A stretch of 64,000 nucleotides of DNA from Anaerolineales bacterium (GTDB lineage: Bacteria > Chloroflexota > Anaerolineae > Anaerolineales > UBA11579), in NCBI GenBank assembly GCA_019637755.1, contig JAHBVC010000001.1:896480-960479 (forward strand). The letters run 5' to 3'. The position numbers and the translations under genes were made by a program. The notes beneath the pieces were generated by a model. That model was not told the origin of the DNA. It saw only the letters and a list, made by a program, of their open reading frames with translations, and searched no databases. Each line of letters begins with the position of its first letter. Position 1 is the stretch's first letter. Positions 13,911 to 53,598 of the stretch are shown here, piece by piece.

Positions 13911-13926
13911 TTTTCTCCTGGGCAGA

Positions 13927-14746: not shown

Positions 14747-14799
14747 TGTGAACAAGCCAAAAAAGGGCTGTGAGTTGGCTGTGAAGGGCTGACTGTGAA
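14747..14799. promoter_or_regulatory. Pho-box-like direct repeats between VTC operon and two-component genes
   Basis: Read on the minus strand, TTCACA occurs at 14794-14799, 14780-14785 and 14747-14752, and CTCACA at 14769-14774. Distances between copies are 14, 11 and 22 bp, so three lie on one 11-bp helical phase. TT(A/C/T)ACA repeats of this spacing are the known binding site of PhoP-type OmpR-family regulators in Bacillus. Binding by the adjacent response regulator is inferred. Confidence 0.65.
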
Positions 14800-14869
14800 T
14801 CTGCTGAGAACGACCGCCAAACGCGGCGCGGCGGTGCGTTTCAGGGCAAACTAGGGAAAGGTGAATGCC

Positions 14870-19921: not shown

Positions 19922-19922
19922 C

Positions 19923-22729: not shown

Positions 22730-23832
22730 TGGATACAGCAACCTGGAACGCCCTCATCTCCCAATTGCCGCGCCCGCATCTGTTGCAGACCGGGCAGTGG
22801 GCGCGCGCCAAAGAGCCTTTTGGCTGGACGGCGCATTACAAGACCTGGGAGCAAGATGGCAAGCTAGTTGCCGCGGCCCAGATCCTGCAGCGCAGCGTGC
22901 GCTTGCCGCTGATTGGCAAAGAGCTGTGCATGCTGTATGTGCCTAAGGGGCCGCTGTTGGCCGACTGGAACGATGCCGCCTTGCGTGCCCGCGTGCTGGC
23001 TGGCTTGCGCGAGACCGCCAAGGAGCTGGGCGCCTTCTTCATCAAGATTGATCCGGATTTAGCCTACGGGTATGGCCTGCCCGGCGCTGAGGATGAGCGC
23101 GTGGTGCCCGCCGCAGCAGATTTTGTAGCCGAGCTGAAATCGGCGGGCTGGCGCTATTCCAACGAGCAAGTGCAGATGCCCAATACGATGTTGATCGACA
23201 TCGACAAGAGCGAAGAAGACATCTTGGCGGCCATGAAACAAAAGGGCCGCTATAACTTGCGTCTCTCACAGAAAAAGGGCGTCACGGTGCGCCGCGGCAC
23301 CCCGGCCGACTTTGCCACCTTCTACAAAATGTACGCCGAGACCTCGGTGCGCGATGGCTTTGTCATCCGCAGCGAAGAGTACTACCGCGCCGTGTGGGAT
23401 AAGTTCTACAACGCCGGCCTGCTGGTTCCCCTGCTGGCCGAGGTGGAAGGCGAAGTGGTGGCCGGGCTGATGCTGTTCATCTACGGCGAGCAATCCTGGT
23501 ACATCTACGGCATGTCGCGTGCGCTGCACCGCGAAACCATGCCCAACTATCTATTGCAATGGGAAGCTATCCGCGCCAGCCGCGAGGCCGGCTGCAAGGT
23601 GTATGACCTGTGGGGCGCGCCGGATGAGTTCAACGAGGCCGACGCGATGTGGGGCGTGTACCGCTTCAAGCTCAGCCTAGGCGCCTACGAAGCACGCCAC
23701 ATCGGCGCCTGGGATCTGCCGATGCAGCCCGCCGTGTACAGTATGTACACGCAAGTGTTGCCGCGCCTGATCGCAGCCATGCGCTGGCGTGGCCGCCGCC
23801 AGACGCAGGCGCAAGTGCGCTCAGAGCAGTAG
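22729..23832 (+). CDS. FemAB/FemX-like peptidoglycan bridge aminoacyltransferase
   Basis: 367-residue protein with the double GNAT fold of FemABX enzymes, which add amino acids from aminoacyl-tRNA to peptidoglycan precursors. It shows HLLQTGQWARAKEPFGW, LPLIGKELCMLYVPKGPLL, FFIKIDPD, MLIDIDKSEEDILAAMKQKGRYNLRL (the region preceding the split second GNAT), DFATFYKMYAETSVRDGF, and VYDLWGAPDEFNEADAMWGVYRFKLSLGA near the end. The ATG shares its first base with the previous stop codon. It may alternatively modify a glycan with an amino acid, as some operon-borne homologues are suspected to do. Confidence 0.92.
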   Translation: MDTATWNALISQLPRPHLLQTGQWARAKEPFGWTAHYKTWEQDGKLVAAAQILQRSVRLPLIGKELCMLYVPKGPLLADWNDAALRARVLAGLRETAKELGAFFIKIDPDLAYGYGLPGAEDERVVPAAADFVAELKSAGWRYSNEQVQMPNTMLIDIDKSEEDILAAMKQKGRYNLRLSQKKGVTVRRGTPADFATFYKMYAETSVRDGFVIRSEEYYRAVWDKFYNAGLLVPLLAEVEGEVVAGLMLFIYGEQSWYIYGMSRALHRETMPNYLLQWEAIRASREAGCKVYDLWGAPDEFNEADAMWGVYRFKLSLGAYEARHIGAWDLPMQPAVYSMYTQVLPRLIAAMRWRGRRQTQAQVRSEQ

Positions 23833-36800: not shown

Positions 36801-37039
36801 GGCAGCGCCGCCCCTGGGGCCAGGCGCACAGTCAGCAGCAGGATCGTCAGCGGTACCGCCAGCACCAGGGCCAGCAGGCGCAACTGCTGTGTACGCGTCC
36901 ACAAGACCTGACGGCGCTCCAGGCGCCAAGCCAGCGCCACGGCGGCGGCCAGCATCACCAGCCAGGCCAGCCATCCCAGGCCGCCCAGCGGAGGCAAAAT
37001 GCTCAGAAAGGGAAAAAATTGCAGAAAAGTGTAGCTCAC
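33821..37039 (-). CDS. Large membrane sensor histidine kinase (multi-TM, Cache-like, HAMP, GAF, PAS)
   Basis: 1,072-residue kinase. Residues 1-235 hold about eight membrane helices; a further helix near 255 is followed by an extracellular Cache-like domain (about 280-500), a second membrane helix (about 510-530), HAMP (to about 590), GAF (about 600-740), PAS (about 755-870), then HisKA with the phospho-acceptor His near 868 in VGHDLQDPL and HATPase with NLLDNAIRFS, KDSGVGIAP and GLGSTFYIELPL. The N-terminal polytopic module may be an extra sensor. GTG start overlaps the cmk stop by 4 bases, so translation is coupled to cmk. No cognate response regulator is adjacent. The signal is unknown. Confidence 0.9.
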   Translation of the reverse strand: MSYTFLQFFPFLSILPPLGGLGWLAWLVMLAAAVALAWRLERRQVLWTRTQQLRLLALVLAVPLTILLLTVRLAPGAALPIPELGMPARGALLAPLLALPWMLALVWFGARAALPLAALGGLLLATADTRSPFTALEFALLAGAFAFLRSQRYSTTLFAWLRKPWVAAALLSLLYPFIYLASAFFWVSPSWLVSLDFALSRLGGATLAAGVPLWLGALLLQLALARWPQWERPNTHSAQPAPSERSLEARFLFALVPLALIAFVAMGALTWWAAGRSAQQLFADRIDNNVQIAAGAVPFVLETGQSLMQQLAADGRLADAPPAQALDVLQSHLSSIPYFEQLTLLDSGGNVVAGTPLSEYSRLQPSPAELDAVGLALQGVNLQLVSAAPSSAQPDSAQLVFVAAVRNSNQQVRNVLVGRTVLASNPFARPVAQSLESINALGAQAFLLDGQGQIVMAPFSAALLQPYQVNANAPAYEEVAVDGTRMWVRYQPAAGSNWAVLVRWPLRLSQQQALRVALPMLGVLLLLAAVAYATLRSRLRSVSQSLQTLAAETQRIAAGDLRAPLSITGSDEIGRLGSAFEVMRRAVLSRAEESQRLLALSHGLSSSLEVRSHIEPLLEAALAAGASLARLVFLNEGGGSGVSFGQGEGHERYEALDAQILALTRAQDQVLLSNPARARLKVEKGTPYPGSVAAFALKDGRKQLGALWLAYDQPQRFEDSTRHYLESLAAQASAAASNAGQYLQARLGQQRLEAVLAADGQPLLLLDAGQRLVFANPAASRVLRLRAGLAAGTAMEQAITHPELQRFLRLAGARPQSAQLRIEQAAYHAELNPLWDGAELLGFVCRLEDVTRSQQQKAAEREVLSTVGHDLQDPLQMVAGYLTMVRMLGPLNEQQEGYVHKIEASVEQITRLAASLLAVDRIQEAEGLRVEEFALAGLLQAAAGEVEAQARQKQIELVLDPVEGHERLLGADRTLLQRALVNLLDNAIRFSARGRTVRLAAKYSTSKVTLSVKDSGVGIAPVDLPLIFTRREGQPASGLSIAHSIVERHKGRAWAESELGLGSTFYIELPLS

Positions 37040-37740
37040 GTCCCGTTGGCCAGCTCTGCCTGCCGTGTGCGCACCAGGGCCAGCGCTTCTTCTAATACTT
37101 CGCTGGCTTGCATCCCATCCGATACGAGGGTGATCGCATCTGCCGCCGCCCGCAACGGGGCCACTGCGCGGCTGGTGTCATAGGCATCACGCTGCTTGAG
37201 CGACTCTAGCACGTCTGCATAGGGCGTGCTGTCCCCGCGCGCGTGCAATTCTTCAAAACGGCGGCGGGCACGCTCCTCTTGCGAGGCGGTGAGGAAGATC
37301 TTGGGGTCCGCCTCCGGCAGCACCACCGTGCCAATATCGCGCCCCGCCATCACCACGCCACCGCGCAGACCAATGCGGCGCTGCTGTTCGGTGAGCGCAC
37401 TACGCACCCCGGCATACGCCGAGACTTGCGAGACGTGCGCCTCTACATCCGGCTGGCGCAGTTGCCAGGTGCAATCCTCGCCATCCAGCAGCACATCGTA
37501 GAGGCGTTGGTCCGCCACGCTGGCCGGGCGCAGATCGATCTCCACCGCGTGTGCCAAGGCTTCCACCGCCGGCTGATCATCCAGTGTCACGCCGCGCTTC
37601 AGCGCCGCCAGGGTGACGGCGCGATACATCGCCCCGGTGTCAAAGTACAAATAACCCAGCGCATCGGCCAGGTTTTTTGCCAGGGTGGATTTGCCGGAAG
37701 CGACCGGGCCGTCGATAGCGATGGTGAGCGGTTTGGACAT
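37036..37740 (-). CDS. cmk: Cytidylate kinase
   Basis: 234-residue enzyme that phosphorylates CMP and dCMP with ATP. P-loop GPVASGKST (10-18), YLYFDTGAMYRAVTL, DGEDCTWQLR, the VSQVSAYAGVR segment of the CMP-binding insert, GRDIGTVVLPEADPKIFLTAS and the lid with ARRRFEEL are present; size is normal. It starts directly after the stop of the upstream membrane protein and overlaps the kinase downstream. Confidence 0.96.
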   Translation of the reverse strand: MSKPLTIAIDGPVASGKSTLAKNLADALGYLYFDTGAMYRAVTLAALKRGVTLDDQPAVEALAHAVEIDLRPASVADQRLYDVLLDGEDCTWQLRQPDVEAHVSQVSAYAGVRSALTEQQRRIGLRGGVVMAGRDIGTVVLPEADPKIFLTASQEERARRRFEELHARGDSTPYADVLESLKQRDAYDTSRAVAPLRAAADAITLVSDGMQASEVLEEALALVRTRQAELANGT

Positions 37741-39450
37741 TTAGCGAAAGTCTCCACTGGAAGTAGTAAGCACGTCATGCGGCAGCACATCGGCTGCCGC
37801 CCATAGAATGATGGTTTCCTGCTGCTGCGGCGTCTGGCGGTAGAGCCACCACGCGATCACATCCGTAGGCAGCATCTGCCAGGCCGGGGAGCTGGAAAGG
37901 GTAAAGCTCTGCCCGCGGTAGGCGCGCTGGCGCGCCGGTTCCTGCACATCGGCCGGCAGGAGCAGCAAGTCTGCCTCCTCGCGCTGCGCTGGCGGCGCGA
38001 ATTGGCGGCCCAGCCAGGCCAGCGCCGGGCTGGGGCTACCCAGCTCCAGGCTCAACGCCTGGCGTTGCCCCGTGGCGCGTAGTGAGAGTGCATCCAGGCT
38101 ATCGCGCAGCAAGCCCAATTGGCCCGCCGCTGCCCCTGGCGACCAAAGCTCGGCGCCCTGGCCGGCCGCGGGGTTGCCAAAGCGCGTGGCCCCCGCCAGC
38201 GCGAACAGCATGCAAAACACGGCCAGGCTCCACACCAGGCCGTCACGCGCCGCGCGGGCAGACCAGCCCAGCGCCACCAGCAAGGTCACCACCGCCGCTA
38301 GCACCACCACGCCGGCGGCGATAAACAGCGCCGGCCGCACCGCCTCTGGCAGCGTGGCCAGTTGCGGAATGCGCGCCAACGAGAGCACCCAAAAACTGAG
38401 CAGCACCACCATCAAGGCGAAATGGCCCCAGGCGGCCTGCGGTTCGCTAGCAGGCAGTTGCAAGCTACTGGCGATCACGGAGGCGGCCAGTAGCCACAAG
38501 GGCACCAATACCCAGATCAGATCGGCCACCTGCCGGCCAGGGTAAAGCAAGATCAACGCCAGCGCGGCCGCCGCCAACAAACTGGCAGCCTGCAGCTCAC
38601 GCCGCCCCTGGCGCCAGGCGAGCAGCGCCCCCCACATGCCCAAGAGCAAGGTGGGGGCGCTGTAGCCAACTAACGCGAACAGCACGCGCCCCGCGGCAAC
38701 GCCACTGGGGTGCAGCCAGCCCGTCACGAATTCGGTCAGCGGCGCGGCCACACTGGCGAAGCCGCCGGGAAACTGAAAGAACAGACTGCTGCCCAACAGC
38801 ATTACCGCCAGCAAGCTCAGCGCGGCCGGCCCCAAAGCATCCTTAGGCAGTGCACTTCTGATGAAGAAGGCCCACACCAGCAGGGCAACCAGCACGCCAA
38901 TATATGCCGCCGGCGCGGCCAGCAAGCCCAGCCCCACAAAAGCGCCAGCCAACCTGTGCCGCCCGGCCGCCCAGGCGCTAGCCGCCAACAGCAGCCCCGC
39001 CAAGGCCAACATGGCACCGGAGGCCAGCCGCGACAACGCCACCAGGCCCGGATCCAAGGCCAAGCCCAGCGCCAGCACCAAGGCGGTACGCCGCCCCAGC
39101 CGGTTGCGCCACGCGTAGGGCAGCGCCACCAGCGCCAGGCCCAGCACGGCCGGCCATAAGCGTGCCAACCATTCATTGCTACCGCTCAGGGAGAAGGTCA
39201 GTGCGGTCAGCAGGCTATAGCCCGGTTGCGCCCCCAAAGTAGTTGTGCCCGTCTGGGCCAACTCAAAGGCAGGCAAGGCAGCGCGGGCCTCAAAGTCATT
39301 TAGCGGCAGGCTGCCCAGTTGCCCGAAGCGCAGCCAGGCGGCCACAACAAGGATCAATACGTAGGCTGCAACTTCAAGGGTTAAGGAGGGGCGGCGCGCC
39401 ATATCCCGCAGATTATAGTCGGCGCTGTCTGCCCCTGCGCGGCGACTCAC
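37741..39450 (-). CDS. Polytopic membrane protein, GT39/ArnT-like
   Basis: 569-residue protein with about 11-12 membrane helices and a short soluble C-terminus (about 470-569). The first extracytoplasmic loop has LPLNDFEARAALPAFELAQTG, in the place of the acidic loop of GT-C glycosyltransferases of the PMT/ArnT kind, and SLSGSNEWLARLWPAVLGLAL follows. It probably transfers a sugar from a polyprenyl carrier outside the membrane. The GTG at 39450 shares one base with the preceding stop (TAGTG); an ATG at 39402 is an alternative start. Fourth of a run of related membrane genes. Confidence 0.75.
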   Translation of the reverse strand: MSRRAGADSADYNLRDMARRPSLTLEVAAYVLILVVAAWLRFGQLGSLPLNDFEARAALPAFELAQTGTTTLGAQPGYSLLTALTFSLSGSNEWLARLWPAVLGLALVALPYAWRNRLGRRTALVLALGLALDPGLVALSRLASGAMLALAGLLLAASAWAAGRHRLAGAFVGLGLLAAPAAYIGVLVALLVWAFFIRSALPKDALGPAALSLLAVMLLGSSLFFQFPGGFASVAAPLTEFVTGWLHPSGVAAGRVLFALVGYSAPTLLLGMWGALLAWRQGRRELQAASLLAAAALALILLYPGRQVADLIWVLVPLWLLAASVIASSLQLPASEPQAAWGHFALMVVLLSFWVLSLARIPQLATLPEAVRPALFIAAGVVVLAAVVTLLVALGWSARAARDGLVWSLAVFCMLFALAGATRFGNPAAGQGAELWSPGAAAGQLGLLRDSLDALSLRATGQRQALSLELGSPSPALAWLGRQFAPPAQREEADLLLLPADVQEPARQRAYRGQSFTLSSSPAWQMLPTDVIAWWLYRQTPQQQETIILWAAADVLPHDVLTTSSGDFR

Positions 39451-41960
39451 TAAGGCACCGCGTAAATAGTGACTGAATCGTTTTGAAAGGCCACGGACAA
39501 GCGTGCCTGGAATTTGGCTTCGTTCACCGGGTAAGCGTTGCGCTCGAGATCACCCACGATGACATAGTGCACGTCATAGCGCTGCAGAATTTCCGCCGCC
39601 AGCGGCCACTGGCTGCTGGCATACAGCGTGCGCACGGCTTCTTCGCGTTCGCGCTCATACTCCCCCGCGCGCCACTGGCTCTCGTGCCCCGGCCAGCCGA
39701 GCACACCCGGCAGGCCACTGAACGTGGCGTAGCGCGCGTAGCCGGTGTAGCTGCCGCCCACCGCCTCTGCTATCACGCCGGGATCGGCCGTCTGCAACCA
39801 GGCGATCGCCGCGCGCGCGTCGGCGGGCAGGTAAGCGCTGCCATCCAGGCTCAACGCCTGGCCTTCGGGGCGGCTGGCCAGATCGGCAAAGGCATACAGT
39901 GGGAACACCAGCCCGGCGCCCAGCGCCAGCAGCAGGGCGGCCCACGCCGCCGTGCGGCGTAGTGACTTGTGCCCAGCCAACCATAAGCTACCGAGCGCAA
40001 ACGCGGCCGCCACGCTCCACAGCAGCCAGGCCTGGTAGTAGAACTTGAACACCGTGTTCATGCGCGTGCCAAACTGATCGCGCAAGTAAACGAACTCTGG
40101 TGCGGTCACCAGCAAGGCGCCCACTAAGGCCAGCAGCAACGCAAACTGGCTGGCGGAGTGCGCCGGGCCGCGGCCAGCAGGCTTAGCGGGCCAGGCCAGC
40201 AAGCCGCCTAGCAGCCCGAGCATCAGCGCCAGGCTGAGCCAACCCCCCGCTGCGGCGGCGCGGCGTTGCAGTGCCGCCGCCAACAGGCTGGGCAGATCAG
40301 CGGCGCCAAAGCCGGTGAGGATCGCCGCGCCGAGGGGTGTGTTGCCCAGCGCGCCGGCATACACCCGCGCCATCAATAGCGACGCGCCCCACAGGGCCAG
40401 CACAAACCCCAGCCCCCCCAAACCTGCCCGCAGCAACAGGCTGGCGGGGCGGGTGCGCCACTGCACCAGCGCCCACAGCAGCAGCGGCGCCCACAGGGGC
40501 AGGAACATGATCCAAAGCTGCACCCCGCGCGTCGGGTTGATCAGGTTGGGCAAGATGCCGCCCGCCTGCGAACTGAAGCCGACAAAGAAGGGCACAAACA
40601 GCAAAACGCCCAAGCCCACCACCACCAGCAGCAGACTCATAAATTCGCCCAGCCGCGCCATGGCCCAGCCGTGAGCCTGCGCCCGGCGGAGGGCATACGC
40701 CGCCGCCAGCACACCGGCATAGATCGGCAGATCCCAAAAATTGATGAAGGCCAGCGCGCCGATCACCAAAGCGGCCAGCAGGATCGCCTCCGGCTGAATG
40801 TACACATCGATCAGCGGCCGGCGGCCGGCGCCAGGGTGGCGCTGGAGCAATTGGCGCCAATCGTTGGCGCCATCCTCAACATACAGCCCCAGCAGCGGCC
40901 GCTTGCTTTCGTTACCGCCGCGATAGGTGTTGTAAGCCAACCCCACGGCCAGCAGCACAAAGGGGATCGAAAACACATGCGGATGCAAATCTCCCAGCAC
41001 AAAAGAAAAAGCCGGGAACTCATCGATCAGCTCTTGCTCCTGGCCGAGGAGATTGCGGTCATTGATCACGCGTGAGGCGCGCCACCACCACCAGTACGAG
41101 GTATCGAAGTAGCGTGGGGCCCAACGCGGCGCCTCGTTGGGCGGGTTCACCAGGTCTTTGACATCCAGCCAGGCCCACACCGCTGACTGCGCCTGGCCGC
41201 TCGCATCGGTTTGCCAAAATAGATGGCGCGCATGGGCAATCTCCAGCAAGCCTTCGGCGTTGCCCATCACCAGCATCAGCAGCGGGGCCAGGCCCGCCAG
41301 CCAGCGCAGCGTGCCGTAGCGCGCCGGCGCGTGCTGGGCCAGCAAGTTGAACACCAGCCCATAGGCGGCGGCGGCGCCCATGGCAAACACGCTGGCAATC
41401 CCCAGGTTGAAGGCCACCGCGCCGGCCACACCCAGCAGCTTGGCCAGCATGGCTACCATCAGGTAGCCGAAGTAATAGTAGGAGATGGAGTATCCCGCCA
41501 GCCACGGGTCATGCGGCGGCAGGCTGGGCGAGCGCAAGATGGCATTGATGAAGGCCAGCTCCATCGGCTTCTCGGTGCCTTCGATGCGCGGGTAACTGGC
41601 GCGCATCCATAACATGAAGCCGAAGCTGAGCAGGAACACCAGCTCGGTCGCTACGATCTGGCTGCGCTGCTCGCGCAGCCATGCGCCCAAGTGCCCCGCG
41701 GGCAGTTGCCGCGCCGCCCAGGCGCTGAGGCCGGCCAGCAGCAGCAAGGCCAAGAGCAAACTCGGCACGTCGTTGGCCAGCAAGCCCAGGCTGCCCAACA
41801 GCCAGAACACAAAGCCCCACAGCAGCAGCGCCAGCGGGCGCAAAAAGCCATAGCCACGCTCGGCCAGGGCTGGGAACCAACGATAGGCCAGCGGCAGCAC
41901 CAGCCAGCTCAGGCCGGCCAGCGCCAGATACCAGGCCAGGGCGCTCCACAACTCACCCAT
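39450..41960 (-). CDS. DUF2298 (Chlor_Arch_YYY-type) polytopic membrane protein
   Basis: 836-residue integral membrane protein. The family core is GTEKPMELAFINAILRSPSLPPHDPW and YYYFGYLMVAMLAKLLGV near residues 130-185, then many helices and a soluble C-terminal part (about 690-836). DUF2298 proteins occur mainly in Chloroflexi and archaea and are thought to be GT-C-like transferases. It starts by a 1-base overlap (TGATG) with the giant fusion upstream, whose C-terminal half belongs to the same family. Confidence 0.9.
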   Translation of the reverse strand: MGELWSALAWYLALAGLSWLVLPLAYRWFPALAERGYGFLRPLALLLWGFVFWLLGSLGLLANDVPSLLLALLLLAGLSAWAARQLPAGHLGAWLREQRSQIVATELVFLLSFGFMLWMRASYPRIEGTEKPMELAFINAILRSPSLPPHDPWLAGYSISYYYFGYLMVAMLAKLLGVAGAVAFNLGIASVFAMGAAAAYGLVFNLLAQHAPARYGTLRWLAGLAPLLMLVMGNAEGLLEIAHARHLFWQTDASGQAQSAVWAWLDVKDLVNPPNEAPRWAPRYFDTSYWWWWRASRVINDRNLLGQEQELIDEFPAFSFVLGDLHPHVFSIPFVLLAVGLAYNTYRGGNESKRPLLGLYVEDGANDWRQLLQRHPGAGRRPLIDVYIQPEAILLAALVIGALAFINFWDLPIYAGVLAAAYALRRAQAHGWAMARLGEFMSLLLVVVGLGVLLFVPFFVGFSSQAGGILPNLINPTRGVQLWIMFLPLWAPLLLWALVQWRTRPASLLLRAGLGGLGFVLALWGASLLMARVYAGALGNTPLGAAILTGFGAADLPSLLAAALQRRAAAAGGWLSLALMLGLLGGLLAWPAKPAGRGPAHSASQFALLLALVGALLVTAPEFVYLRDQFGTRMNTVFKFYYQAWLLWSVAAAFALGSLWLAGHKSLRRTAAWAALLLALGAGLVFPLYAFADLASRPEGQALSLDGSAYLPADARAAIAWLQTADPGVIAEAVGGSYTGYARYATFSGLPGVLGWPGHESQWRAGEYEREREEAVRTLYASSQWPLAAEILQRYDVHYVIVGDLERNAYPVNEAKFQARLSVAFQNDSVTIYAVP

Positions 41961-44900
41961 CAGCGTTCCAGCACTTCATAGATGGCCGTATCGCCAACGC
42001 GGAAAACTTCCTGCCACAGGCGCCCCTCGGCCGCGGCGAACTTGGTCAGACCCTCCGCGGAATACACGGCTTGCTCCATCTGGCCCACCACAATGTAGCG
42101 CACGGCGTACTTGGCCAGCAGGTTCTCGGCTTGGGTCAGATCCGTGGTTTCGTAAAATAGATTGACATCGCCCATGCGCCCCCAGACATCATTGCCGGGC
42201 ACAAACTCGCGCTGCTGGCGTTGGTGATGGTTCCAGCCCAGCACCGCCGGCAACCCGGTATAGATGGAATAGCGCGCCCCCCAGCGGTACTCGCTGACGT
42301 AACCTTCCATGATCACCGGCGAACCGTTGACGTGGTCTTGCATCCAGCGGATGGCGGCGTAATCTTCACTGAGCATCAGCACGCGATCGGCTTCGTAGTA
42401 CACGGCATTTTGCATATACGCCATGCCGTCGAGGGTGTGCGGGCTACCCTCCGCCATGCGGTCTCTGATCTTGGCGGTGACGCCCAGTAGCAGGAACAAT
42501 GCCGCGCAGGCCAGCAACAGCGTGGCCAGGCCCTGCCACACGCCGCGCCAATTGGGTGACCAGTGCGGCAGGGCCTGCCAACACCAAGCCGCCGCCAGGC
42601 TGGCGCACAGCGCCAGCAACGTCCAGGCTTGCATATAAAACTTGAAGACCGTGTTCATGCGCGAGATGTCGCCTTTCAGCACCATCACTTCCACAAACAA
42701 GGTCAGGAAGACCGCCGTGCCACTCAAGAACAGCACCAGCCGCTTGCTTTCATCCTGGCCGGGGCGCAGGAACAGCGCACCGATCCACAGCAGCAGGGGC
42801 ACCAGCAACCAGCCCACCACCACGCCGAGAATCTGCAGGGCAAACAAGATCAGGAAAATAGCTAGCGCGCCCAGGGGCAGCGCCCACACATAGCCCTCGA
42901 GCTTGCGCACCGAGGAAAGCGGCGTACTGGCCAGCCATTGGCGCGTCTCCCAGGCCAGCCAGGCCACCAGGAAAAAGAGGAACACGCCCCAATGCGTAAA
43001 GTAAGGCCCAAAGGCCACGTGAACACCATCCCACACGCGCAGAGAGCTGTAGCCCTGGCGATACCACCAGCCAAACGGCACATAGGCCAGGTAGCACAAC
43101 GCCGCCAGCACCAGCGGCCCGGCCAGCATCTTCAGGCTGCGCGGCAAGCCCTGCGCCGTGCTACGCGGCAGGTAACGCCACAAGGCATAGCCCGCAGCCA
43201 GCGCCGCCAAGAGCGCGTAGACCGGCAGATCCCAGGTGTTGATCGGGCGCAAGCTGCCGATGACGATGCCGCCAAAAACGAAGACCCAGGCCAGTTGCAG
43301 CGCGCCGCGCAGCCCGCGTTGGGCGCGTGCCGTGCCCCACCCGCCGCTGAGCACCGCCGAGAGCGCCCAGGCCAGCGCCAGCAATGTGACCGGCAGGGCG
43401 ATCATGTGAGCGTGCAGATCGGCGTAGGTGAAGGTGAACAACGGGAATTCAGTGATCGGCGCCGATTCGCCCGGAGCGGGGAAGATGCGCGTCGGGTTCC
43501 AATACCACTCGCCCAAGCCATACGGCAGCGGCGTCCCGGTCAGCGAGAGGGCCAGCCCGCGTAGCATCCAGCCCAGCTGGGTTAGTGTGCCCACGCCTTC
43601 CAACGCGGCCCCGCCGCCGCCCAGCCGCGCGTAGCCCTGCAAGATCATTTGAATGCTGCCCAGGTTGCCCAGCAGCACACTGGCCAGCGCGGCGCTCAAA
43701 CCCACGGCATGCGCACCCGGGCCGCGCGCCGCCACCGCCTGGCGTGCCTGCCAGGCGGCCCACAGATTCCATGCGACGCTATAGGCCCCCAAGGCCAGCA
43801 TGGCGAACAAGCTGGGCAGGATCAGGTTGTAGGCCACCGCGGGGATAATGCCGAGCAGCTTGACCAGGGCGCCGACCAATACAAAGCCGTAATAGTAGTA
43901 ATTGATATAGCCGCCGGCGAACCACGGGTCATACGCGGGGAAGCTGCTGCTCTTGAGCACCGCGTTGAAATAGGCAAAATCCATCGGCTTCTCGCCGCCT
44001 TTGGCAGGGTGCCATAAATCAGGATTGCCCAGACGGATCAGCAGCATGATGAGGAAGAAGCCGAGGAACAACGCCTCGGTGCGCAGGAACATGGCACGCT
44101 GGCTCTTCCACTCCGCCTTGATCTGCGGCCATTGTGGCCGGGCCGCCAGCACGCCCAACAAGCCGATCAGCAGTGCGCACACGGCCAGCCAGGCGCGGCT
44201 GAAGCTCAGCCCCAGCGAGCCGCCCAGCCAGCCCAGATAGGCCAGCAGCAGTAACCCTGCCAAGCGCGCAAACGGGTAGCCGCCATCCCGCAGGCCGGGC
44301 AGAGCCCAGCGCACCAAGGGATACGCCAGCACGCCCAGCACGCCCAGCGCCAGATACCACACCACCAGGCTGACCCATGGCGCAGCATTGACCCAGGCCT
44401 GGCGGCTGAACAACGCCGCCCAGGTGCCGCCGGCCTGCTGCTCTGCCAGCCGGTCGGCGGGCAGCATCAGCGTGGGCGGCACACCACCCGAGGCTTGCTT
44501 CGGGGTGAGGTTGACCGCCTGGTCTACCGGAGCGCTGGCCAGAATGGCGGCCACCGCGGCCGGGTCGTAGGCGGCGGTCTTTTTGAAGATCAGCACCTTG
44601 GGATGGTCGTAGACGGTGAAGGCTTCTTCGGCCCATTGGTCGTTGAAGCTCCAACCGCCCAGGTGCGGGGCGTTCTCAAACACTTGCACCAGCTCAAAGC
44701 CCAGTTGGCCGCTGAACTGGCCGGGCTGTGCTTCGGCATAGCACCACTCAATGCTGCGCTCCGTGGGGCAGCCTAACAGGGCGCGGTAATAAGTGATCGC
44801 CAGCGGAAAGCGTTCCGGCAGGCGCGGCAGGCTGCCCCATTGGCGGTTGGACGAGATGAACACATAGTCCGCCGCATCGAGCGTGCTCTGAAATCGCTGC

Positions 44901-47110
44901 ACCTTCTCGGCGTTCTCGTTCCAGTACATTTCAAAGTTCAGCCCGCCCTGGTAGATGCCCCCAAAGCCGTCGTAGCTATCGATGCGCAGGGGCAGGCCGT
45001 CATCCCAACTGGTTTCGTTGGCCACCGGGCTCCCTTGCAAAATCGCCTGCGTTGCATTGAGTGTGCTGAGTTGCAAGTAGTAGATGATGCCTTGCTGCAG
45101 GGTCACTGGCGACTCTAGCGGCAGGCTGGCTGCGTTGGCCAGGCTGGCGCCGGGCGCCACCGCCAACGTAGTATCCAGCAGGGGCTCGGCCATATCCGGG
45201 CTCAGGCTGAGCTGCACGCGCAGCGGCACGGGCGCCGGCCGCAAGGCCTTCTCCGGCCGCAAGTAGAGCACCACCTGGTCAGGGAAGTTGCCTGGTGCCA
45301 GTGCAAATTGCAGATCCAACGCCGCGCCCAGTTGGGTGAGTAGCGGCGCGTCGAGCACGTCTTGTTGCGGCAGCTCACTGCTTTGCGAGTGGCTCACCAC
45401 CACGCGCTCCACCCACAGGCTGCCTGTGCCCGCCGGAAACTGCACATGCAATTGGTACAAGGCCAACGGGTCAGCGAAGGTGGTGGCGCCTACCGCCATT
45501 GCCACTGCGCTGGTCTCACCCACAGGCAGGTTGGCAAAATCAACCACCTGCCCGTAATCGGCGTTGAGCACCTCGCCACTGGCGCCCGAACGCAGCGTCA
45601 GCGCCAGCGGCGTTTGCAGCGTCTTGAAGTCCAGCTGGGTCAGCACGCCACCCTGGCGCGCCGAGAAGCTGGTGAGCAAGGGCATTTCGGCGCGGATGCG
45701 CGTGTTGTAGGGCAGCGAGAGCGGCTGGTGGCTGGTGCCCTGCTCGTTTTGCACAATGAGTGTCAGCGGGCCAGGGATGTTGTCATAGATCCAGCGCGTG
45801 GCGGCCACGCGGGCGTGCGGCTGCAGGTAGACCTGGACGAAGGCCAGCGACCATAGCAGGCCACCCACCACGCCCAGCACGCCCAGGCCCAGCGCGGCGG
45901 CACGCAGCCAGCGGCTGGCAGGCGCCGCTGCGCCGCGGCGCGCCGCGGCCAACCGCCACAGCTCAAAAATGCCCCAGGCGCCCAAGATCGCCAGCATTGG
46001 GTACAGCGGCAGAAAATAGCGCATGGTGGGGTTGAAGGCCAGCGACTGTTGCACAAAATAGATCAGGCCCCAAGCCAAAACCACAAAGTACGGCTTGAGC
46101 CACTCGCCTTTAAGGGCGCGCCAGGCTGCCCAGCCAAAGCCCAGCCAGCTAGTGATCGCCAGTGGCCAACCCAGCCCCCAGCGCACAATGTTTTGCAAGC
46201 CGAACCACAGCGGGCGGCGCGCCCATTGCATCGAGGGCGGCCAATCGGCATCGCCGCTCACCTGGGCGGCAAGCTGGCGCATAGTCTCAACCCACTCAGG
46301 GTTGAGGCGTAGGCCGATGAAGGCATAAGGCTGAAAAATGCGGAAGGCCAGCAGGCTCAGCCCGGCCGCCATCAGCGTATACAGCACACCCTTGCCAAGC
46401 TGCGCCTCGCGCCACTCGGCCTCCATCGCCTGCACCCGAATGATCACGGCGATCGGCAAGGTGAGGCACACCAGGCCCACGCTGACTTTGGAAGCCATGG
46501 CGCTGCCCAACGCCACGCCGAACCACACGAAATCCCACAGGTCAAAGCGCCCCTTGGCTTTGGTGGAGGGAGTGGCCACGCGCACGGCGAAATACACCGT
46601 GATGACAGTGAACAGGTTGACAAAATTGTCCACTGTCCAAAAATGCGATTGCTGGATCGCCATGACGGAGACGCTGTAGAAGGCCGCCGCCAGCAAGCCG
46701 ACCCGGCGATCAAACAGGCGCCGGGCGGTGAAGTACACCATGGCGATCACGCCGACATCGGCCAGGGCGGAAAGCACGCGCCCGACCAGATAGATGGAGT
46801 CGTAACCGGTCATCTGGGTCCACTCGCCGACATAGCGCACCAAGACCACTGGCAGCGTGCCGTAGACAAAGAAGCTAAACCCGGCATTGCTGGGATTCAG
46901 CGTGGAGCTGGCCGTGTTGAAGTATTCGCCGAGGCTGGGGACACTGTGCAGCGCCGCGGCTACCTGGGTCAGAAAGCGCTCATCGGGGTGCAAGTGGCGG
47001 CTCTCGTCCCAATCCAGCCCCGCCAGGCGCAGGGTAGCGGCGGCCAGCAACAAGGCCACCAGGGCGGCCTGATACAGCCATTGCGGAATGCGGTAGGTGT
47101 GCTTGGGCAT
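41960..47110 (-). CDS. Giant GT39-DUF2298 fusion membrane glycosyltransferase
   Basis: 1,716-residue protein made of two polytopic modules. The N-terminal part (to about residue 430) is a PMT/ArnT-like GT-C domain with acidic loop LDWDESRHLHPDERF (about 32-46) and about 10 helices. Residues about 440-920 are mostly soluble and beta-rich, containing carbohydrate-binding-like stretches. From about 930 another polytopic domain begins with the DUF2298 signature GGEKPMDFAYFNAVLKSSS, then YDPWFAGGYINYYYYGFVLVGALVKLLG near 1040-1080. The C-terminal 130 residues are soluble and resemble the tail of the neighbouring DUF2298 protein. The stop overlaps the next start by one base. Likely role: sugar transfer from polyprenyl donors to envelope glycans (inferred). 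Confidence 0.9.
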   Translation of the reverse strand: MPKHTYRIPQWLYQAALVALLLAAATLRLAGLDWDESRHLHPDERFLTQVAAALHSVPSLGEYFNTASSTLNPSNAGFSFFVYGTLPVVLVRYVGEWTQMTGYDSIYLVGRVLSALADVGVIAMVYFTARRLFDRRVGLLAAAFYSVSVMAIQQSHFWTVDNFVNLFTVITVYFAVRVATPSTKAKGRFDLWDFVWFGVALGSAMASKVSVGLVCLTLPIAVIIRVQAMEAEWREAQLGKGVLYTLMAAGLSLLAFRIFQPYAFIGLRLNPEWVETMRQLAAQVSGDADWPPSMQWARRPLWFGLQNIVRWGLGWPLAITSWLGFGWAAWRALKGEWLKPYFVVLAWGLIYFVQQSLAFNPTMRYFLPLYPMLAILGAWGIFELWRLAAARRGAAAPASRWLRAAALGLGVLGVVGGLLWSLAFVQVYLQPHARVAATRWIYDNIPGPLTLIVQNEQGTSHQPLSLPYNTRIRAEMPLLTSFSARQGGVLTQLDFKTLQTPLALTLRSGASGEVLNADYGQVVDFANLPVGETSAVAMAVGATTFADPLALYQLHVQFPAGTGSLWVERVVVSHSQSSELPQQDVLDAPLLTQLGAALDLQFALAPGNFPDQVVLYLRPEKALRPAPVPLRVQLSLSPDMAEPLLDTTLAVAPGASLANAASLPLESPVTLQQGIIYYLQLSTLNATQAILQGSPVANETSWDDGLPLRIDSYDGFGGIYQGGLNFEMYWNENAEKVQRFQSTLDAADYVFISSNRQWGSLPRLPERFPLAITYYRALLGCPTERSIEWCYAEAQPGQFSGQLGFELVQVFENAPHLGGWSFNDQWAEEAFTVYDHPKVLIFKKTAAYDPAAVAAILASAPVDQAVNLTPKQASGGVPPTLMLPADRLAEQQAGGTWAALFSRQAWVNAAPWVSLVVWYLALGVLGVLAYPLVRWALPGLRDGGYPFARLAGLLLLAYLGWLGGSLGLSFSRAWLAVCALLIGLLGVLAARPQWPQIKAEWKSQRAMFLRTEALFLGFFLIMLLIRLGNPDLWHPAKGGEKPMDFAYFNAVLKSSSFPAYDPWFAGGYINYYYYGFVLVGALVKLLGIIPAVAYNLILPSLFAMLALGAYSVAWNLWAAWQARQAVAARGPGAHAVGLSAALASVLLGNLGSIQMILQGYARLGGGGAALEGVGTLTQLGWMLRGLALSLTGTPLPYGLGEWYWNPTRIFPAPGESAPITEFPLFTFTYADLHAHMIALPVTLLALAWALSAVLSGGWGTARAQRGLRGALQLAWVFVFGGIVIGSLRPINTWDLPVYALLAALAAGYALWRYLPRSTAQGLPRSLKMLAGPLVLAALCYLAYVPFGWWYRQGYSSLRVWDGVHVAFGPYFTHWGVFLFFLVAWLAWETRQWLASTPLSSVRKLEGYVWALPLGALAIFLILFALQILGVVVGWLLVPLLLWIGALFLRPGQDESKRLVLFLSGTAVFLTLFVEVMVLKGDISRMNTVFKFYMQAWTLLALCASLAAAWCWQALPHWSPNWRGVWQGLATLLLACAALFLLLGVTAKIRDRMAEGSPHTLDGMAYMQNAVYYEADRVLMLSEDYAAIRWMQDHVNGSPVIMEGYVSEYRWGARYSIYTGLPAVLGWNHHQRQQREFVPGNDVWGRMGDVNLFYETTDLTQAENLLAKYAVRYIVVGQMEQAVYSAEGLTKFAAAEGRLWQEVFRVGDTAIYEVLER

Positions 47111-49341: not shown

Positions 49342-50172
49342 CTAGCGGCGGCGCGCGACATACCAGGTATAGGTGCCTTCAGGGTCGGCGCCGTGATTGG
49401 CGTGCGCCGCAAACAGGCGTTGCGTGATGCCCAAGTTGGCGCGGCTGGGCCACAGCACCCAGCGGCCGAACAACTTGCGCGCCACATAGCTGGGCAAGCC
49501 AAAGTAATGCCCCCACTCCAGTGCGTGCAGCGCGGCGGGTGGGAAGTAGTGCCACCATGCTTCTATATCAAAGCCGGCTTCGTCCAGCCGCGTCGCCCAT
49601 TCTTCAGGCGAGAGCATGTTGATATGGCGCGAGATACGCGTGAACAGGCGCACATAGGCGGCGGCCAGGGCCTTGAGGCCTAGCTTGCTGAGCCAATTGG
49701 CAATCGAAAGATTGTGCGGCCAGCGATGATTGGGCACGCAGAACAGGAACAGGCCGCCCTTGCGCACCAGGCGGCCGGTTTCATTGAGCACCGCTTGCAA
49801 ATTGGGGATGTGCTCAAGCACCGAATTACTGAGCGCGCTGGCAAAGTGGCCGCCGGCCAGCGGGGCGCGGTGGCCGAGGGCCTGCACCAGGCCGCCATAG
49901 GCGCCCCACTGCTTGGCTTCCTGCAGGGAGACGAAGGCCGGGTCCAGCCCGACCTCAAACTTTTGCGTAAATACCTGGCTGGCAAAATGGCCATCCCCGC
50001 AGCCGAGGTCATACACCGGCGCGGCGAGTTCAAAATCTTTGTAAAAATCAGCCTCTACCGCGCGCAACAAAGCACGGAAATACGGCAAGGCCTGTAACTG
50101 GATCCACCAGTGTTTATTCTCGCCCTGGCGCGGTGGGGGCGCTGATTGCGGCGGCAAGCTCACGCCCCACAT
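49342..50172 (-). CDS. SAM-dependent class I methyltransferase
   Basis: 276-residue methyltransferase of the Methyltransf_11 type. SAM-binding motif I VYDLGCGDGHFASQVF, an acidic motif II VGLDPAF, ALSNSVLEHIPNLQAVLNETGRLVRKGGLFLFCVPN (motifs post-I to III) are clear. The C-terminal part (HALEWGHYFGLPSYVARKLFGRW) is family-specific. Start: ATG 50172 overlaps the upstream gene by 13 bases, while GTG 50163 gives the common 4-base GTGA overlap; either is possible. Clustered with a GT4, so it may methylate a sugar or glycolipid. Confidence 0.88.
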   Translation of the reverse strand: MWGVSLPPQSAPPPRQGENKHWWIQLQALPYFRALLRAVEADFYKDFELAAPVYDLGCGDGHFASQVFTQKFEVGLDPAFVSLQEAKQWGAYGGLVQALGHRAPLAGGHFASALSNSVLEHIPNLQAVLNETGRLVRKGGLFLFCVPNHRWPHNLSIANWLSKLGLKALAAAYVRLFTRISRHINMLSPEEWATRLDEAGFDIEAWWHYFPPAALHALEWGHYFGLPSYVARKLFGRWVLWPSRANLGITQRLFAAHANHGADPEGTYTWYVARRR

Positions 50173-51335
50173 CCGGCAAGCTCACGCGCAATCTCTTCGA
50201 AGAGCGCTTCGTGGCGCGCCGCGCAAGTTTGCGGGCTGAACTCCGTACGCAGCGCGTCGGCATCGCCGCGATATTTTTCGGGGTGCGAGAGCACCTCGAT
50301 CATGTTGGCGGCCAGCGCGGCGGCATCGCCCACGGGCGAGACCAGGCCCATGCCGCTCATGCGCACGGGTTGGCGCACGCCAGGCAGCGCGGCGGCCACC
50401 ACAGGTTTGCCATTCATCATCGCTTCAATCTGTACAAAGCCAAAGGTCTCAGTGGAATTGGTGCTGGGCACCACCAGCAGATCCAGCCCCTGATAGAACG
50501 AGGGCATGTCTTCCATGGGCAGCGTGCCCAAAAATCTCCACTGGCCGGCTTTCTCGTATTCGGCGATCTGCGGGAACAGGCGCTGGGCATAGGCTTCTTC
50601 GCCCAGCACATCCTGATACTGCCCGGCAAACCACACCAGTGCGTTGGGGAACTTTTGCTGCACCGCGGGCAGCGCTTGCAGCAAGACTTCAACACCCTTT
50701 TCCGCAGCGAAGCGCGTGGCCATGGCAATCACTGGGCCGCGTTGCTCAGGATTGTGGCGAGCGGAAAAAGCCAAGGCTTTTTCCGGCTCGCTTTGCGGCA
50801 ACTCCACCGCAGGGGAGATTACGCGCACCTTTGACGCAAAGCGGCGCAGGTACGGCGAATGACTGGCAAAGTCTTCTGTATATGAAGAGATGCGGTGCGT
50901 AAAGCGGGCGGCCAAGTCATTCATGAAATTGACAACAAAGTTGACAAAACGATTAAACAGGCCCGACGAAAGGATCAGATCGGAGTGGTAAATGATCACG
51001 GTGGCTTTCTTGAGCAGCCAGCCGCGGATCGCCAGGCCGGCGGCGTCAAACTGCGGCAGGTGCAGCAGCAGCGCATCATGCTTGCGCGTCTCCTGCCAGG
51101 CCAGGCGGCCGAGGCTGGGCATGATCACGCCCTTGCTGATGCGCAGCGCCACCGGCACGCGGCGGATGCGCACGCCATCCTGCATCTCTTCCAGCGGCAA
51201 GTCCTTCTCAAACTGGGAAGTGAGCACAGTGACCGCGTGCCCGCGCTGCACCAGCGCCTTGGCCAGGCGCTCGGCGTAAATGGTCAGCCCGCTGGTGTGC
51301 GGGCGATAATAGGTGAGAACCGTAAGGATACGCAC
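50160..51335 (-). CDS. Glycosyltransferase family 4
   Basis: 391-residue GT-B-fold retaining transferase. N-terminal acceptor domain with YYRPHTSGLTIYAERLAKALVQRGHAVTVLT; C-terminal domain with GPVIAMATRFAAEKGVEVLLQAL (nucleotide-sugar binding), VVPSTNSTETFGFVQIEAMMNGKPVVAAALPGVRQPV (the ExFGxxxxEA motif) and the end LFEEIARELAG. GTG start. TAAACT (51342-51347) lies 6 nt before it with no Shine-Dalgarno sequence, so it may be leaderless. First gene of a GT4-methyltransferase pair. Confidence 0.93.
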   Translation of the reverse strand: MRILTVLTYYRPHTSGLTIYAERLAKALVQRGHAVTVLTSQFEKDLPLEEMQDGVRIRRVPVALRISKGVIMPSLGRLAWQETRKHDALLLHLPQFDAAGLAIRGWLLKKATVIIYHSDLILSSGLFNRFVNFVVNFMNDLAARFTHRISSYTEDFASHSPYLRRFASKVRVISPAVELPQSEPEKALAFSARHNPEQRGPVIAMATRFAAEKGVEVLLQALPAVQQKFPNALVWFAGQYQDVLGEEAYAQRLFPQIAEYEKAGQWRFLGTLPMEDMPSFYQGLDLLVVPSTNSTETFGFVQIEAMMNGKPVVAAALPGVRQPVRMSGMGLVSPVGDAAALAANMIEVLSHPEKYRGDADALRTEFSPQTCAARHEALFEEIARELAGCGA

Positions 51336-51558: not shown

Positions 51559-52590
51559 CTAATCAAACAGCTCGCGGTGTGCTTGCACCCAGGCGACCAG
51601 CTCGGCCGTGCCCTGCTCTACGCCAATCGTGGGCTTCCAGGCTAGCGCCTTGCGCACCTTGCGGATATCGCTGATATAGACCTTCTGGTCGCCGGGACGA
51701 GTGGGCCCATAGCTCACCGGGATCTTGCGCCCGAGCAACTTCTCCAGCAGCGGGCCGCATTCCTTCCAGATCGACAGCGTGAAATCAGGCCCGCCGCCGA
51801 TGTTGAAGGCTTCGCCAGCCACTATGCGCTGGCGCGACACCGCGGCATCGTAGGCCGCGATCAGATCACGCACGTGCAGCATGTCGCGCACCTGCTTGCC
51901 ATCACCATAGATGCTGATCGGCTTGCCGAGCACGGCGGCGATCACGAACCAGGCCAGCCAGCCCTGGTCCTCCACGCCGAATTGGCGCGGGCCGTAGATA
52001 CAGCTCTGGCGGAAGACGACTGAGGGGATGTTGTAAATGCGCGCATAATCGCGCACGTATTGCTCGGCGGCGCCTTTGGAGCAGCCATACGGGGAGTGAA
52101 AATCGAGCTGCTGCGTTTCGGGCAGGCCGTGGGGCAGCTTGGCGTAGCGGTAGCGCGTCTTGCCTGTGAGCAGACGGTGCTCCAGCATCTCGCCATAGAC
52201 CTTGTTGGTGGAGGCATAGATAATGAAGGGTGCATGCCCGGCCCGCCGCGCCGCTTCAAGCACGTTGAAGGTGCCGAGGGCGTTGATCTCAAAATCAGTG
52301 CGCGGATCGGTCACTGAGGAGGTGACCGCCACCTGGCCGGCCAGGTGCGCGATCACCTCTGCACCGGCCACCGGCGCGTGCAGTGCCTCGGCGTCGCGCA
52401 CATCGCCAACCACCAGCTCGAACGACTCGGCGCCGTGGGCCTGGCGCAACCAGGCCAGGTTGCGCTCGGCGCCTTTGCGCGAGAGATTATCGAAGATGAC
52501 GACGCGTTCGCCGCGCTCCAGCAACGCATGCGCATAGTTGGAGCCGATGAATCCGGCGCCGCCGGTGATCAGATACTTTTTCTTTGCCAT
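51559..52590 (-). CDS. NAD-dependent epimerase, CDP-tyvelose/paratose 2-epimerase-like
   Basis: 343-residue extended SDR. GGAGFIGSNYAHALLERGE (9-27), VVGDVRDAEAL, IIYASTNKVYGEM, YGCSKGAAEQYVRDYARIYN (YxxxK), QSCIYGPRQFGVEDQGWLAWFVIA, GDGKQVRDMLHVRDL and FNIGGGPDFTLSIWKE. The STNKVYG and SIWKE strings are typical of CDP-paratose 2-epimerase (TyvE/RfbE) relatives, so a dideoxy or related nucleotide sugar may be the substrate. It follows the flippase-like gene by 3 bases and lies in a lepA operon. Confidence 0.9.
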   Translation of the reverse strand: MAKKKYLITGGAGFIGSNYAHALLERGERVVIFDNLSRKGAERNLAWLRQAHGAESFELVVGDVRDAEALHAPVAGAEVIAHLAGQVAVTSSVTDPRTDFEINALGTFNVLEAARRAGHAPFIIYASTNKVYGEMLEHRLLTGKTRYRYAKLPHGLPETQQLDFHSPYGCSKGAAEQYVRDYARIYNIPSVVFRQSCIYGPRQFGVEDQGWLAWFVIAAVLGKPISIYGDGKQVRDMLHVRDLIAAYDAAVSRQRIVAGEAFNIGGGPDFTLSIWKECGPLLEKLLGRKIPVSYGPTRPGDQKVYISDIRKVRKALAWKPTIGVEQGTAELVAWVQAHRELFD

Positions 52591-52593: not shown

Positions 52594-53598
52594 TCAGGCC
52601 TGCCGGTTAAGCAAGGTTCGGTAAATATCACCCAGGGATTCACCCTGTTGCCAGAAGCCAATGATACCGATGATGCCAGTGATCACAAAATAGGTGAGGT
52701 GGCCCACCACGGCATAGGCCAGCGCGATGGCGGGGTCTGCATTGAAGAAGCTTAGCGCGCCCACCAGCACGCCCTCAAATACGCCGATGTAGCCCGGCGA
52801 TGAGGGCAACGCCACGCCCAACGAGGATACGCCAATACTGAAGAAGGCCCATAGCCATTGCGCCATGGGGAAAAAGGCGCGCATCAGCACGAAGTACCAG
52901 GCTACGTTGAACAACCAGGTCAGCACCATCCAAAACAGCACCTGCAAAAAGCGTTTGCCATCGCGCAGGGCTGAGAGCCCTTCCGTGAAGGCGCCAGCCT
53001 TATCCACCAGCCACTCGCGCAGCGCCGGCCAGCGGCCGGTGAGGCGCTGGATCAGCGCCGGTACCTGCTTGGGGTTGCTGGCCATCCAGAACAGCAGGCC
53101 AAAGCCAATCCCCACCAAACCCAGCGAAACGTAGGCGGCGGTACGCGCCCACTCCGCGCCCACCACCAGCGGCAGGGTGAAGAGCAGCAGCGCGGCGGCC
53201 AAGCCGAGATCGAAAACGCGCTCGACCACCACGGTGGAGAGCGCCTCCCAGAAGCTGAGCTTGGCGCGGTTGCTGATCAGCAGGGCGCGCCCCAACTCGC
53301 CGAGGCGGAAGGGCAGCACATTGTTGAGCAGATAGGCCTGGTTGACCACCAGAAACGCCTCCTTGATGGAGGCGCGTTCCTGCAAGATGGTACGCCAGGC
53401 CAGGCTGCGCGTCAGCAGAGTGCCGAAGAACAGCAGCACCACCAGCGGGAACCAGCTAAAGTCAGCAATGCGCAAAGCCGGGCCGAGTTGGTCAACATCA
53501 ATAAAGTAGAACAGGCCCACCACGGCGGCGGCGGTGACCAGCAAGCCGGGCAGTAAGCGCAGCCAGGGATTGGGCGTAGAGGCGTTAGTTTTTGTCAT
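52594..53598 (-). CDS. Flippase-like (UPF0104/lysylphosphatidylglycerol synthase TM region) membrane protein
   Basis: 334-residue protein with about eight membrane helices of the AglD/MprF transmembrane family. It shows [27 protein letters not shown] near residue 45, then [46 protein letters not shown], and later [32 protein letters not shown], both diagnostic. Relatives take part in moving or modifying lipid-linked glycans. The gene starts 14 bases inside the end of lepA and ends 3 bases before the epimerase gene. Confidence 0.92.

What the first reader, a model, noticed from the sequence alone, without database searches (positions are those of the whole stretch)
41960..47110. 1,716-residue GT39-DUF2298 fusion next to a free-standing DUF2298 gene
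One chain joins a PMT/ArnT-like transferase, a large beta-rich extracytoplasmic middle and a complete DUF2298 domain, and the next gene (1-base overlap) encodes a second DUF2298. The two DUF2298 copies share the EKPM...F(I/F)NA and YYY(F/Y)G signatures. The fusion supports the idea that DUF2298 proteins act with, or as, polyprenol-dependent glycosyltransferases, and the coupled block of four large membrane proteins may form one glycan-building complex.
Basis: partly seen in the sequence, partly recalled or inferred. Interest (0 to 1): 0.6.

Follow-up and report, generated by a model that had tools for sequence, protein, structure and literature searches.

The report
Two sugar-transfer enzymes in one chain
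One very long bacterial membrane protein carries two modules that both look like sugar-transferring enzymes, and its second half belongs to a family whose job was unknown, so the find gives that family a likely and testable job.

Summary
The 1,716-residue frame is intact, carries PMT_2 (E 3e-12) and a complete DUF2298/TIGR03662 domain (5e-109; 7e-151), and overlaps a second DUF2298 gene by one base. It is no assembly error: 52 of 60 sampled genomes of the class have both halves in one frame, and so does the isolate Leptolinea tardivitalis. Some chains carry a third module. The new point is what DUF2298 is. Its predicted structure (pLDDT 92.6) matches only GT-C glycosyltransferases in the first 43 rows (Z 18.1 to 8.3; next row 4.8), best to oligosaccharyltransferase STT3/AglB, including AglB's C-terminal domain. 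Polar residues on the predicted outer loops are nearly invariant: E1040 106/106, D1231-x-H1233-x-H1235 105/106. AglB binds its metal with D47 and D161-x-H163 (PMC8342417). The acceptor motifs of that enzyme (WWDYG, TIXE) are absent. Best reading: a tandem of two extracytoplasmic GT-C transferases in an operon with five GT-C modules in four coupled genes. Catalysis, donor, acceptor and physical complex are inferred, not shown. New variant of a known kind.

The parts
41960..47110 (-). Fusion gene, 1,716 aa: PMT-like GT-C module plus DUF2298 module
45779..47083 (-). N-terminal GT-C membrane core, residues 10-444
   Evidence: model; VIA Z 30.3 to AglB 3waj, 27.9 to ArnT 5f15; PMT_2 and PMT
46979..46990 (-). 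First external loop acidic motif HPDE, residues 41-44
   Evidence: 33 of 33 rows with letters, 3 gaps
46628..46645 (-). Conserved H156...D161, presumed second external loop
   Evidence: H 36/36, D 33/36
45017..45766 (-). Beta-rich extracytoplasmic insert, residues 449-698, lineage-limited
   Evidence: model; module scan
44576..44968 (-). Alpha/beta cap of the N-terminal enzyme, residues 715-845
   Evidence: model; module scan
44102..44380 (-). Three extra membrane helices at the head of DUF2298, residues 911-1003
   Evidence: model; loop charges; present in free copies too
42458..44101 (-). DUF2298 GT-C membrane core (13 helices by my count), residues 1004-1551
   Evidence: model, PDB comparison
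43886..43993 (-). EL1 signature E1040-K-P-M ... YYYYG (E1040 just before helix JM1)
   Evidence: E1040 106/106, D1061 106/106, G1075 105/106
43406..43450 (-). EL2 signature E1221-F-P ... D1231-L-H1233-A-H1235
   Evidence: E1221 105/105, D1231, H1233 and H1235 105/106 each
41969..42424 (-). DUF2298 C-terminal globular domain, residues 1563-1714
   Evidence: VIA Z 11.9, 118 residues, 2.5 A to AglB C-terminal domain 3vu0
39450..41960 (-). Free-standing DUF2298 gene, 836 aa
47114..49249 (-). Upstream PMT_2-type GT-C gene, 711 aa
   Evidence: profile comparison with the fusion's N-half, probability 98%
37741..39450 (-). Downstream GT-C-like gene, 569 aa, distantly Agl23-like (TIGR03663)
   Evidence: E 1e-6, under the cut-off; 22 of 23 members of its alignment match TIGR03663
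49342..50172 (-). Methyltransferase
50160..51335 (-). GT4 glycosyltransferase
51559..52590 (-). Nucleotide-sugar epimerase/dehydratase
52594..53598 (-). LPG_synthase_TM (flippase-like) membrane protein
   Evidence: PF03706 E 6e-45
37036..37740 (-). Cytidylate kinase, conserved neighbour

Best explanation
The protein is a tandem of two extracytoplasmic GT-C glycosyltransferases. The N-terminal one is of the PMT/ArnT kind with an alpha/beta cap that here holds a beta-rich insert. The C-terminal one, DUF2298, is an uncharacterised GT-C(A) family laid out like an oligosaccharyltransferase: 13 membrane helices, a C-terminal globular domain, an acidic residue at the tip of the first loop helix (E1040, with D/E1044) and a D-x-H-x-H site in the second external loop that probably binds a metal. 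Three extra helices at the head of DUF2298 bring the chain back to the cytoplasmic side behind the cap, so both active sites face outwards. Each module would take a sugar from a polyprenyl-phosphate (or -diphosphate) donor; with the free DUF2298 and the two flanking GT-C proteins the operon would extend one lipid-linked or protein-linked glycan step by step, after the GT4, epimerase and methyltransferase have made its start inside. Shown: fusion, its conservation, profile membership, predicted fold, conserved residues. Inferred: catalysis, metal, donor, shared acceptor, order of steps. My estimates: GT-C fold 0.95; DUF2298 catalytically active 0.75; two sugars added to one acceptor by one chain 0.45.
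For: Model of residues 903-1716 from 62 sequences, pLDDT 92.6, pTM 0.94. VIA: ranks 1-43 are all GT-C enzymes or their fragments, Z 18.1 (8agc STT3, 477 residues, 7.5 A) down to 8.3; rank 44 is a GPCR at 4.8. Foldseek: the 5 hits with E below 0.001 are DPY19 and AftA, both GT-C. N-half model pLDDT 92.0; all 50 VIA rows are of GT-C fold (PIG-U included), best Z 30.3. Conservation in the 106-107 rows with letters (108 in all): E1040 106/106, D1061 106/106, D1231, H1233, H1235 105/106 each, R1484 106/107; H1629 103/104, E1679 104/104. Loop charges alternate as helices that cross the membrane require, and put EL1, the DxHxH loop and the NTWD loop on the negative side. AfAglB binds metal by D47 (EL1) and D161, H163 (EL2, Asp-His-His) and has 13 helices (PMC8342417, passages); the GT-CA catalytic Asp sits at the tip of JM1 (PMC12041525, passages). 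Fusion in 52 of 60 class genomes, free copy within 6 kb in 32 of the 52. Free copy followed by an Agl23-family gene within 3.5 kb in 37 of 53. The own genome encodes a GT2 like polyprenyl-phosphate sugar synthases, unlinked (L064: AglJ model 2.5e-34, under its cut-off).
Against: Sequence alone does not join the two GT-C halves: hhalign probability 7.6%, P 0.0046; the EL1 region alone aligns only helix 1, P 0.042, and does not carry the acidic motif along. Foldseek TM-scores are low (0.23-0.39 for ranks 1-5) and rmsd in the VIA rows is large (7.5 A for rank 1). I had no coordinates, so no active-site superposition was made; helix count and sidedness are my reading of the secondary structure plus loop charges. 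A GT-C fold does not prove activity (PIG-U). No substrate evidence. In genome G010 fused and free copies are about 500 kb apart, so adjacency is not needed.
Confidence: 0.6

Rival explanations
1. DUF2298 keeps the GT-C fold but is not catalytic: it binds the lipid-linked substrate and holds the neighbouring transferase in place, as PIG-U does in the GPI transamidase.
For: PIG-U has the fold and does another job (PMC12041525, passages) and appears among the matches of the N-half. DUF2298 mostly stands beside or inside another GT-C.
Against: The conserved residues are charged and metal-ligand types on the predicted outward loops, 105-106 of 106, in both paralogues; a scaffold need not keep D-x-H-x-H. 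Free DUF2298 also occurs with no PMT-DUF2298 fusion in the fetched stretch (L087, L088).
Confidence: 0.18
2. DUF2298 and the Agl23-like neighbour are flippases that bring lipid-linked sugars to the outer face for the PMT-like enzyme; the fusion channels the flipped donor.
For: Haloarcula Agl23, the family that follows DUF2298 here, suppressed rft1 deletion in yeast and, purified, moved lipid-linked Man5GlcNAc2 in liposomes (PMC11182771, passages). DUF2298 and Agl23-family genes are neighbours in 37 of 53 cases.
Against: Agl23-like proteins here are themselves PMT-like (A3 against A2: 91%; L087 copy PMT_2 1.6e-12), so the flippase label may describe a side activity. A separate flippase-like gene (PF03706) lies upstream on the same strand. 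The EL1/EL2 residue pattern is that of a transferase.
Confidence: 0.12
3. DUF2298 works like an oligosaccharyltransferase: it hands a finished glycan from the lipid to a protein (probably O-linked), while the PMT-like half and the other GT-C proteins build that glycan.
For: Best structural matches are STT3/AglB with their C-terminal domain; 13 helices and EL2 D-x-H as in AglB. The genome has no STT3 match. O-glycans are likely on the archaellum of the Chloroflexota bacterium L. aerophila (PMC12488501, passages).
Against: WWDYG in 0 of 108 rows, TIXE/SVSE in 2 of 108; the EL5 stretch is only 13 residues in fused copies, 47 in free copies. Two DUF2298 per operon, and two in one chain in L081-L083, fit stepwise addition better than one final transfer.
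Confidence: 0.25

Closest known systems
TIGR03662 Chlor_Arch_YYY / PF10060 DUF2298
   Same: Both window copies pass the cut-offs; YYYxG signature
   Different: That family has no assigned function; I found no paper on a fusion behind a PMT-like GT-C
Oligosaccharyltransferase STT3 / AglB / PglB
   Same: Best fold matches, 13 helices by my count, C-terminal globular domain, acidic EL1 and D-x-H in EL2
   Different: No PF02516 match, no WWDYG, no TIXE/SVSE loop, three extra N-terminal helices
PMT / ArnT glycosyltransferases (PMT_2, PMT)
   Same: N-half: Pfam matches, HPDE motif; closest folds AglB, ArnT, Pmt4
   Different: Carries an alpha/beta cap with a beta insert and continues into a second GT-C
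Agl23 (TIGR03663) of Haloarcula
   Same: The gene after the free DUF2298 scores distantly with this family; the pairing is common in the class
   Different: Window copy scores 28.1 against a cut-off of 126.25; Agl23 is described as a flippase

Membership tests
DUF2298 / TIGR03662 | Score above the curated cut-off over the whole model | tested here: met
DUF2298 / TIGR03662 | YYYxG signature | tested here: met
   that the signature names the family is recalled
GT-C (GT-CA) superfamily, DUF2298 half | GT-C membrane fold | tested here: met
   predicted structure only; 43 of the first 43 VIA rows, then Z drops to 4.8
GT-C (GT-CA) superfamily, DUF2298 half | Acidic residue at the tip of JM1 in the first external loop | tested here: met
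   E1040 directly before helix 1041-1053, 106/106; definition from PMC12041525; geometry not superposed
GT-C (GT-CA) superfamily, DUF2298 half | Transfers sugar from a lipid-phosphate donor | not testable with these tools
   needs biochemistry
Oligosaccharyltransferase STT3/AglB/PglB | PF02516 profile match | tested here: not met
   no STT3 match for P0001 or P0002 at E 0.01; none in the genome
Oligosaccharyltransferase STT3/AglB/PglB | WWDYG motif in the C-terminal domain | tested here: not met
   0 of 108 rows
Oligosaccharyltransferase STT3/AglB/PglB | TIXE/SVSE in external loop 5 | tested here: not met
   2 of 108 rows by text match; stretch of 13 residues in fused copies
Oligosaccharyltransferase STT3/AglB/PglB | Second DXD-type motif in external loop 2 | tested here: met
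   D-x-H-x-H in 105 of 108 rows; place between helices 3 and 4 by my helix count
PMT / PMT_2 (N-half) | Pfam cut-off | tested here: met
   PF13231 47.4 bits, PF02366 33.9 bits
CAZy GT39 (N-half) | Assignment by CAZy | not testable with these tools
   no CAZy library at hand
Agl23 (TIGR03663), gene 37741-39450 | Score above the curated cut-off | tested here: not met
   28.1 against 126.25 bits

The most novel reading that the evidence does not exclude
DUF2298 is a metal-dependent, oligosaccharyltransferase-like GT-C family with a non-Asn acceptor, and Chloroflexota string two or three such transferases into one chain as an outward-facing assembly line: five GT-C active sites in four translationally coupled genes here, paired with an Agl23-type protein that is itself a transferase rather than a flippase.
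Probability: 0.3. Interest if true: 0.75.

Novelty: new variant of a known kind. Interest (0 to 1): 0.52.

Why it matters
A family of unknown function, present in 58 of 60 sampled genomes of this bacterial class and also in Haloferax and Methanosarcina, gets a concrete identity and named residues to mutate. Tandem and triple GT-C chains would be a simple way to fix the order of sugar additions outside the cell. The pairing with Agl23 bears on an open question: whether that protein flips lipid-linked sugars or transfers them.

Tried and rejected
Assembly error: rejected. Recent duplication of the neighbouring DUF2298: rejected; the two window copies are 30% identical, and on a FastTree of 105 sequences fused and free copies fall in separate old groups (8 changes of label, shuffled mean 36.6). 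That tree is a quick one and warns of long branches (L062, L083, and L062 joined with L086). DUF2298-Agl23 fusion in G037 (1,488-residue frame): rejected; the extra length overlaps the upstream gene's frame and shows no Agl23 match. Sequence-only proof that the two halves are homologous: not obtained. Sequence search of the PDB with the DUF2298 profile gave only matches that I take for chance; the N-half profile gave Pmt1 and ArnT. Promoters and terminators: close to shuffled sequence (4 against a mean of 3.4; 22 against 17.4). Paper searches for DUF2298, for its model names and for tandem GT-C proteins gave 2, 0 and 1 papers; of the 2, I read one passage of PMC8756737 (a gene list that names DUF2298 beside PMT2 genes); the other, PMC12828279, I saw in the listing only, as I did PMC11754754. 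I recall, without a call, that Pfam may already place PF10060 in its GT-C clan; if so, the fold assignment is less new than the literature search suggests. Families missing from the VIA lists are not thereby excluded.

Full report
Observation. The frame 41960-47110 (-) is real and uninterrupted and holds PMT_2 at residues 109-225 and a full DUF2298 at 955-1499; NCBI's model for the same family, Chlor_Arch_YYY, covers 912-1713. The next gene is a second full DUF2298 that starts on the last base of the stop codon (CTGATGGG); the gene after that starts the same way (TTAGTGAG); the gene before the fusion ends 3 bases ahead of it. All four are membrane proteins with GT-C-like signatures: 47114-49249 has PMT_2 and its orthologues align with the fusion's N-half at 98% probability; 37741-39450 has weak PMT_2 and weak Agl23 scores, and its orthologues align with the N-half at 91%.

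Conservation. A search with the whole protein in the genome-contig collection gave 38 loci. By my reading, 20 of the 38 show the order GT-C, fusion, DUF2298, GT-C on one strand (in L024 the fusion is split by a frame change); many of the rest are cut by contig ends. Most are Anaerolineae by title, among them the isolate Leptolinea tardivitalis; two loci (L036, L038) come from candidate division CSSED10-310 and one (L039) from an unassigned bacterium. In 60 genomes drawn from the class, DUF2298 is in 58 and the N-half model matches in 60; both are in one frame in 52; in 32 of these 52 a free DUF2298 lies within 6 kb on the same strand. The six genomes with DUF2298 but no fusion have completeness 70, 80, 82, 94, 93 and 73%, so some may be broken contigs. 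In the phylum 104 of 151 genomes have DUF2298, 102 over the cut-off.

Modules. With profile models made from my alignments, the common order is membrane core, cap, three helices, DUF2298 core, DUF2298 C-terminal domain. The beta insert of the window protein is recognised only in near relatives. Three loci (L081, L082, L083) carry chains of 2,333-2,498 residues with a second DUF2298 behind the first. Free DUF2298 copies also begin with the three helices. Loop charges suggest that the N-terminus of DUF2298 lies outside, which is just what a fusion behind an extracytoplasmic cap needs. This is inference from charge and helix parity.

What DUF2298 is. The model of residues 903-1716 is confident throughout. 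Against solved structures, every row down to rank 43 is a GT-C enzyme or a piece of one: STT3, ALG12, AglB, Pmt4, ArnT, ALG9, AftA, AftB, PglB, DPY19, AftD, Emb; then Z falls from 8.3 to 4.8. The tool warns that helical bundles can reach Z of about 13 by chance; 26 rows exceed 13, and the purity of the list and the separate match of the small C-terminal domain to AglB (Z 11.9, 2.5 A over 118 residues) argue against chance. From the secondary structure I count three leading helices and 13 core helices. A paper on AglB states 13 helices and DXD motifs in external loops 1 and 2, with metal held by D47, D161 and H163, the second motif being Asp-His-His (PMC8342417, passages). DUF2298 has E1040 at the head of the first loop helix (invariant), an acidic residue at 1044 (105 of 106), and D-L-H-A-H in what I count as external loop 2. 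The motifs by which an oligosaccharyltransferase reads the Asn sequon are missing. So it resembles that class in layout, but it is not a member.

Two paralogues. Fused and free copies are old, separate groups. They differ in the stretch that I count as external loop 5: median 13 residues in 62 fused and 47 in 43 free copies. In oligosaccharyltransferases that loop helps to bind the acceptor (PMC8342417), so the two copies may serve different acceptors. The free copy is followed within 3.5 kb by an Agl23-family match in at least 37 of 53 cases; in L087 a free DUF2298 without a fusion beside it is followed by a full-scoring Agl23 (E 2.4e-89) and a flippase-like gene.

Pathway. Upstream on the same strand lie a methyltransferase, a GT4, an epimerase, a flippase-like membrane protein and lepA. 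The genome has no STT3 match, 17 PMT_2 matches of which 11 pass the cut-off and a GT2 near the AglJ, PpgS and ArnC-type models, under their cut-offs (L064). This fits a glycan begun inside and extended outside by lipid-phosphate-dependent transferases. What the glycan is and what carries it is unknown.

Limits. No coordinates were available for superposition, sequence-level homology between the two GT-C halves is not significant, and nothing here measures activity. Papers were read as passages only: PMC8342417, PMC12041525, PMC10920833, PMC11182771, PMC12488501, PMC7226087, PMC8993221, PMC8756737.

Noticed in passing
L081:6097-13593, L082:9422-16714, L083:5989-12990: Chains of 2,333-2,498 residues with one PMT-like module and two DUF2298 modules; the second modules lie nearest to short-loop fused copies on the quick tree, not to free ones.
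   Followed up: partly
L089:4520-14198 and L090:5053-16247: Two fusion genes within one gene row, followed by a free DUF2298.
   Followed up: partly
DUF2298 alignment, external loop 5: Free copies have about 47 residues where fused copies have 13.
   Followed up: partly
L062:5635-7890: A free DUF2298 on a Pseudobutyrivibrio plasmid beside O-antigen ligase, GT2 and sugar epimerase genes; it keeps the EL1 motif.
   Followed up: partly
window 33821-37740: Cytidylate kinase and a 1,072-residue sensor kinase coupled to the end of the gene row; the cytidylate kinase is a conserved neighbour.
   Followed up: no
window 11613-14820: CotH kinase and VTC polyphosphate polymerase domains on one strand.
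   Followed up: no
window 17479-23832: A separate surface-polysaccharide cluster: GT2, sugar-phosphate transferase, epimerase, Polysacc_synt_2, FemAB.
   Followed up: no
L024:9938-15491 and L040:7843-13160: The fusion gene is split by a frame change in these two MAGs.
   Followed up: no
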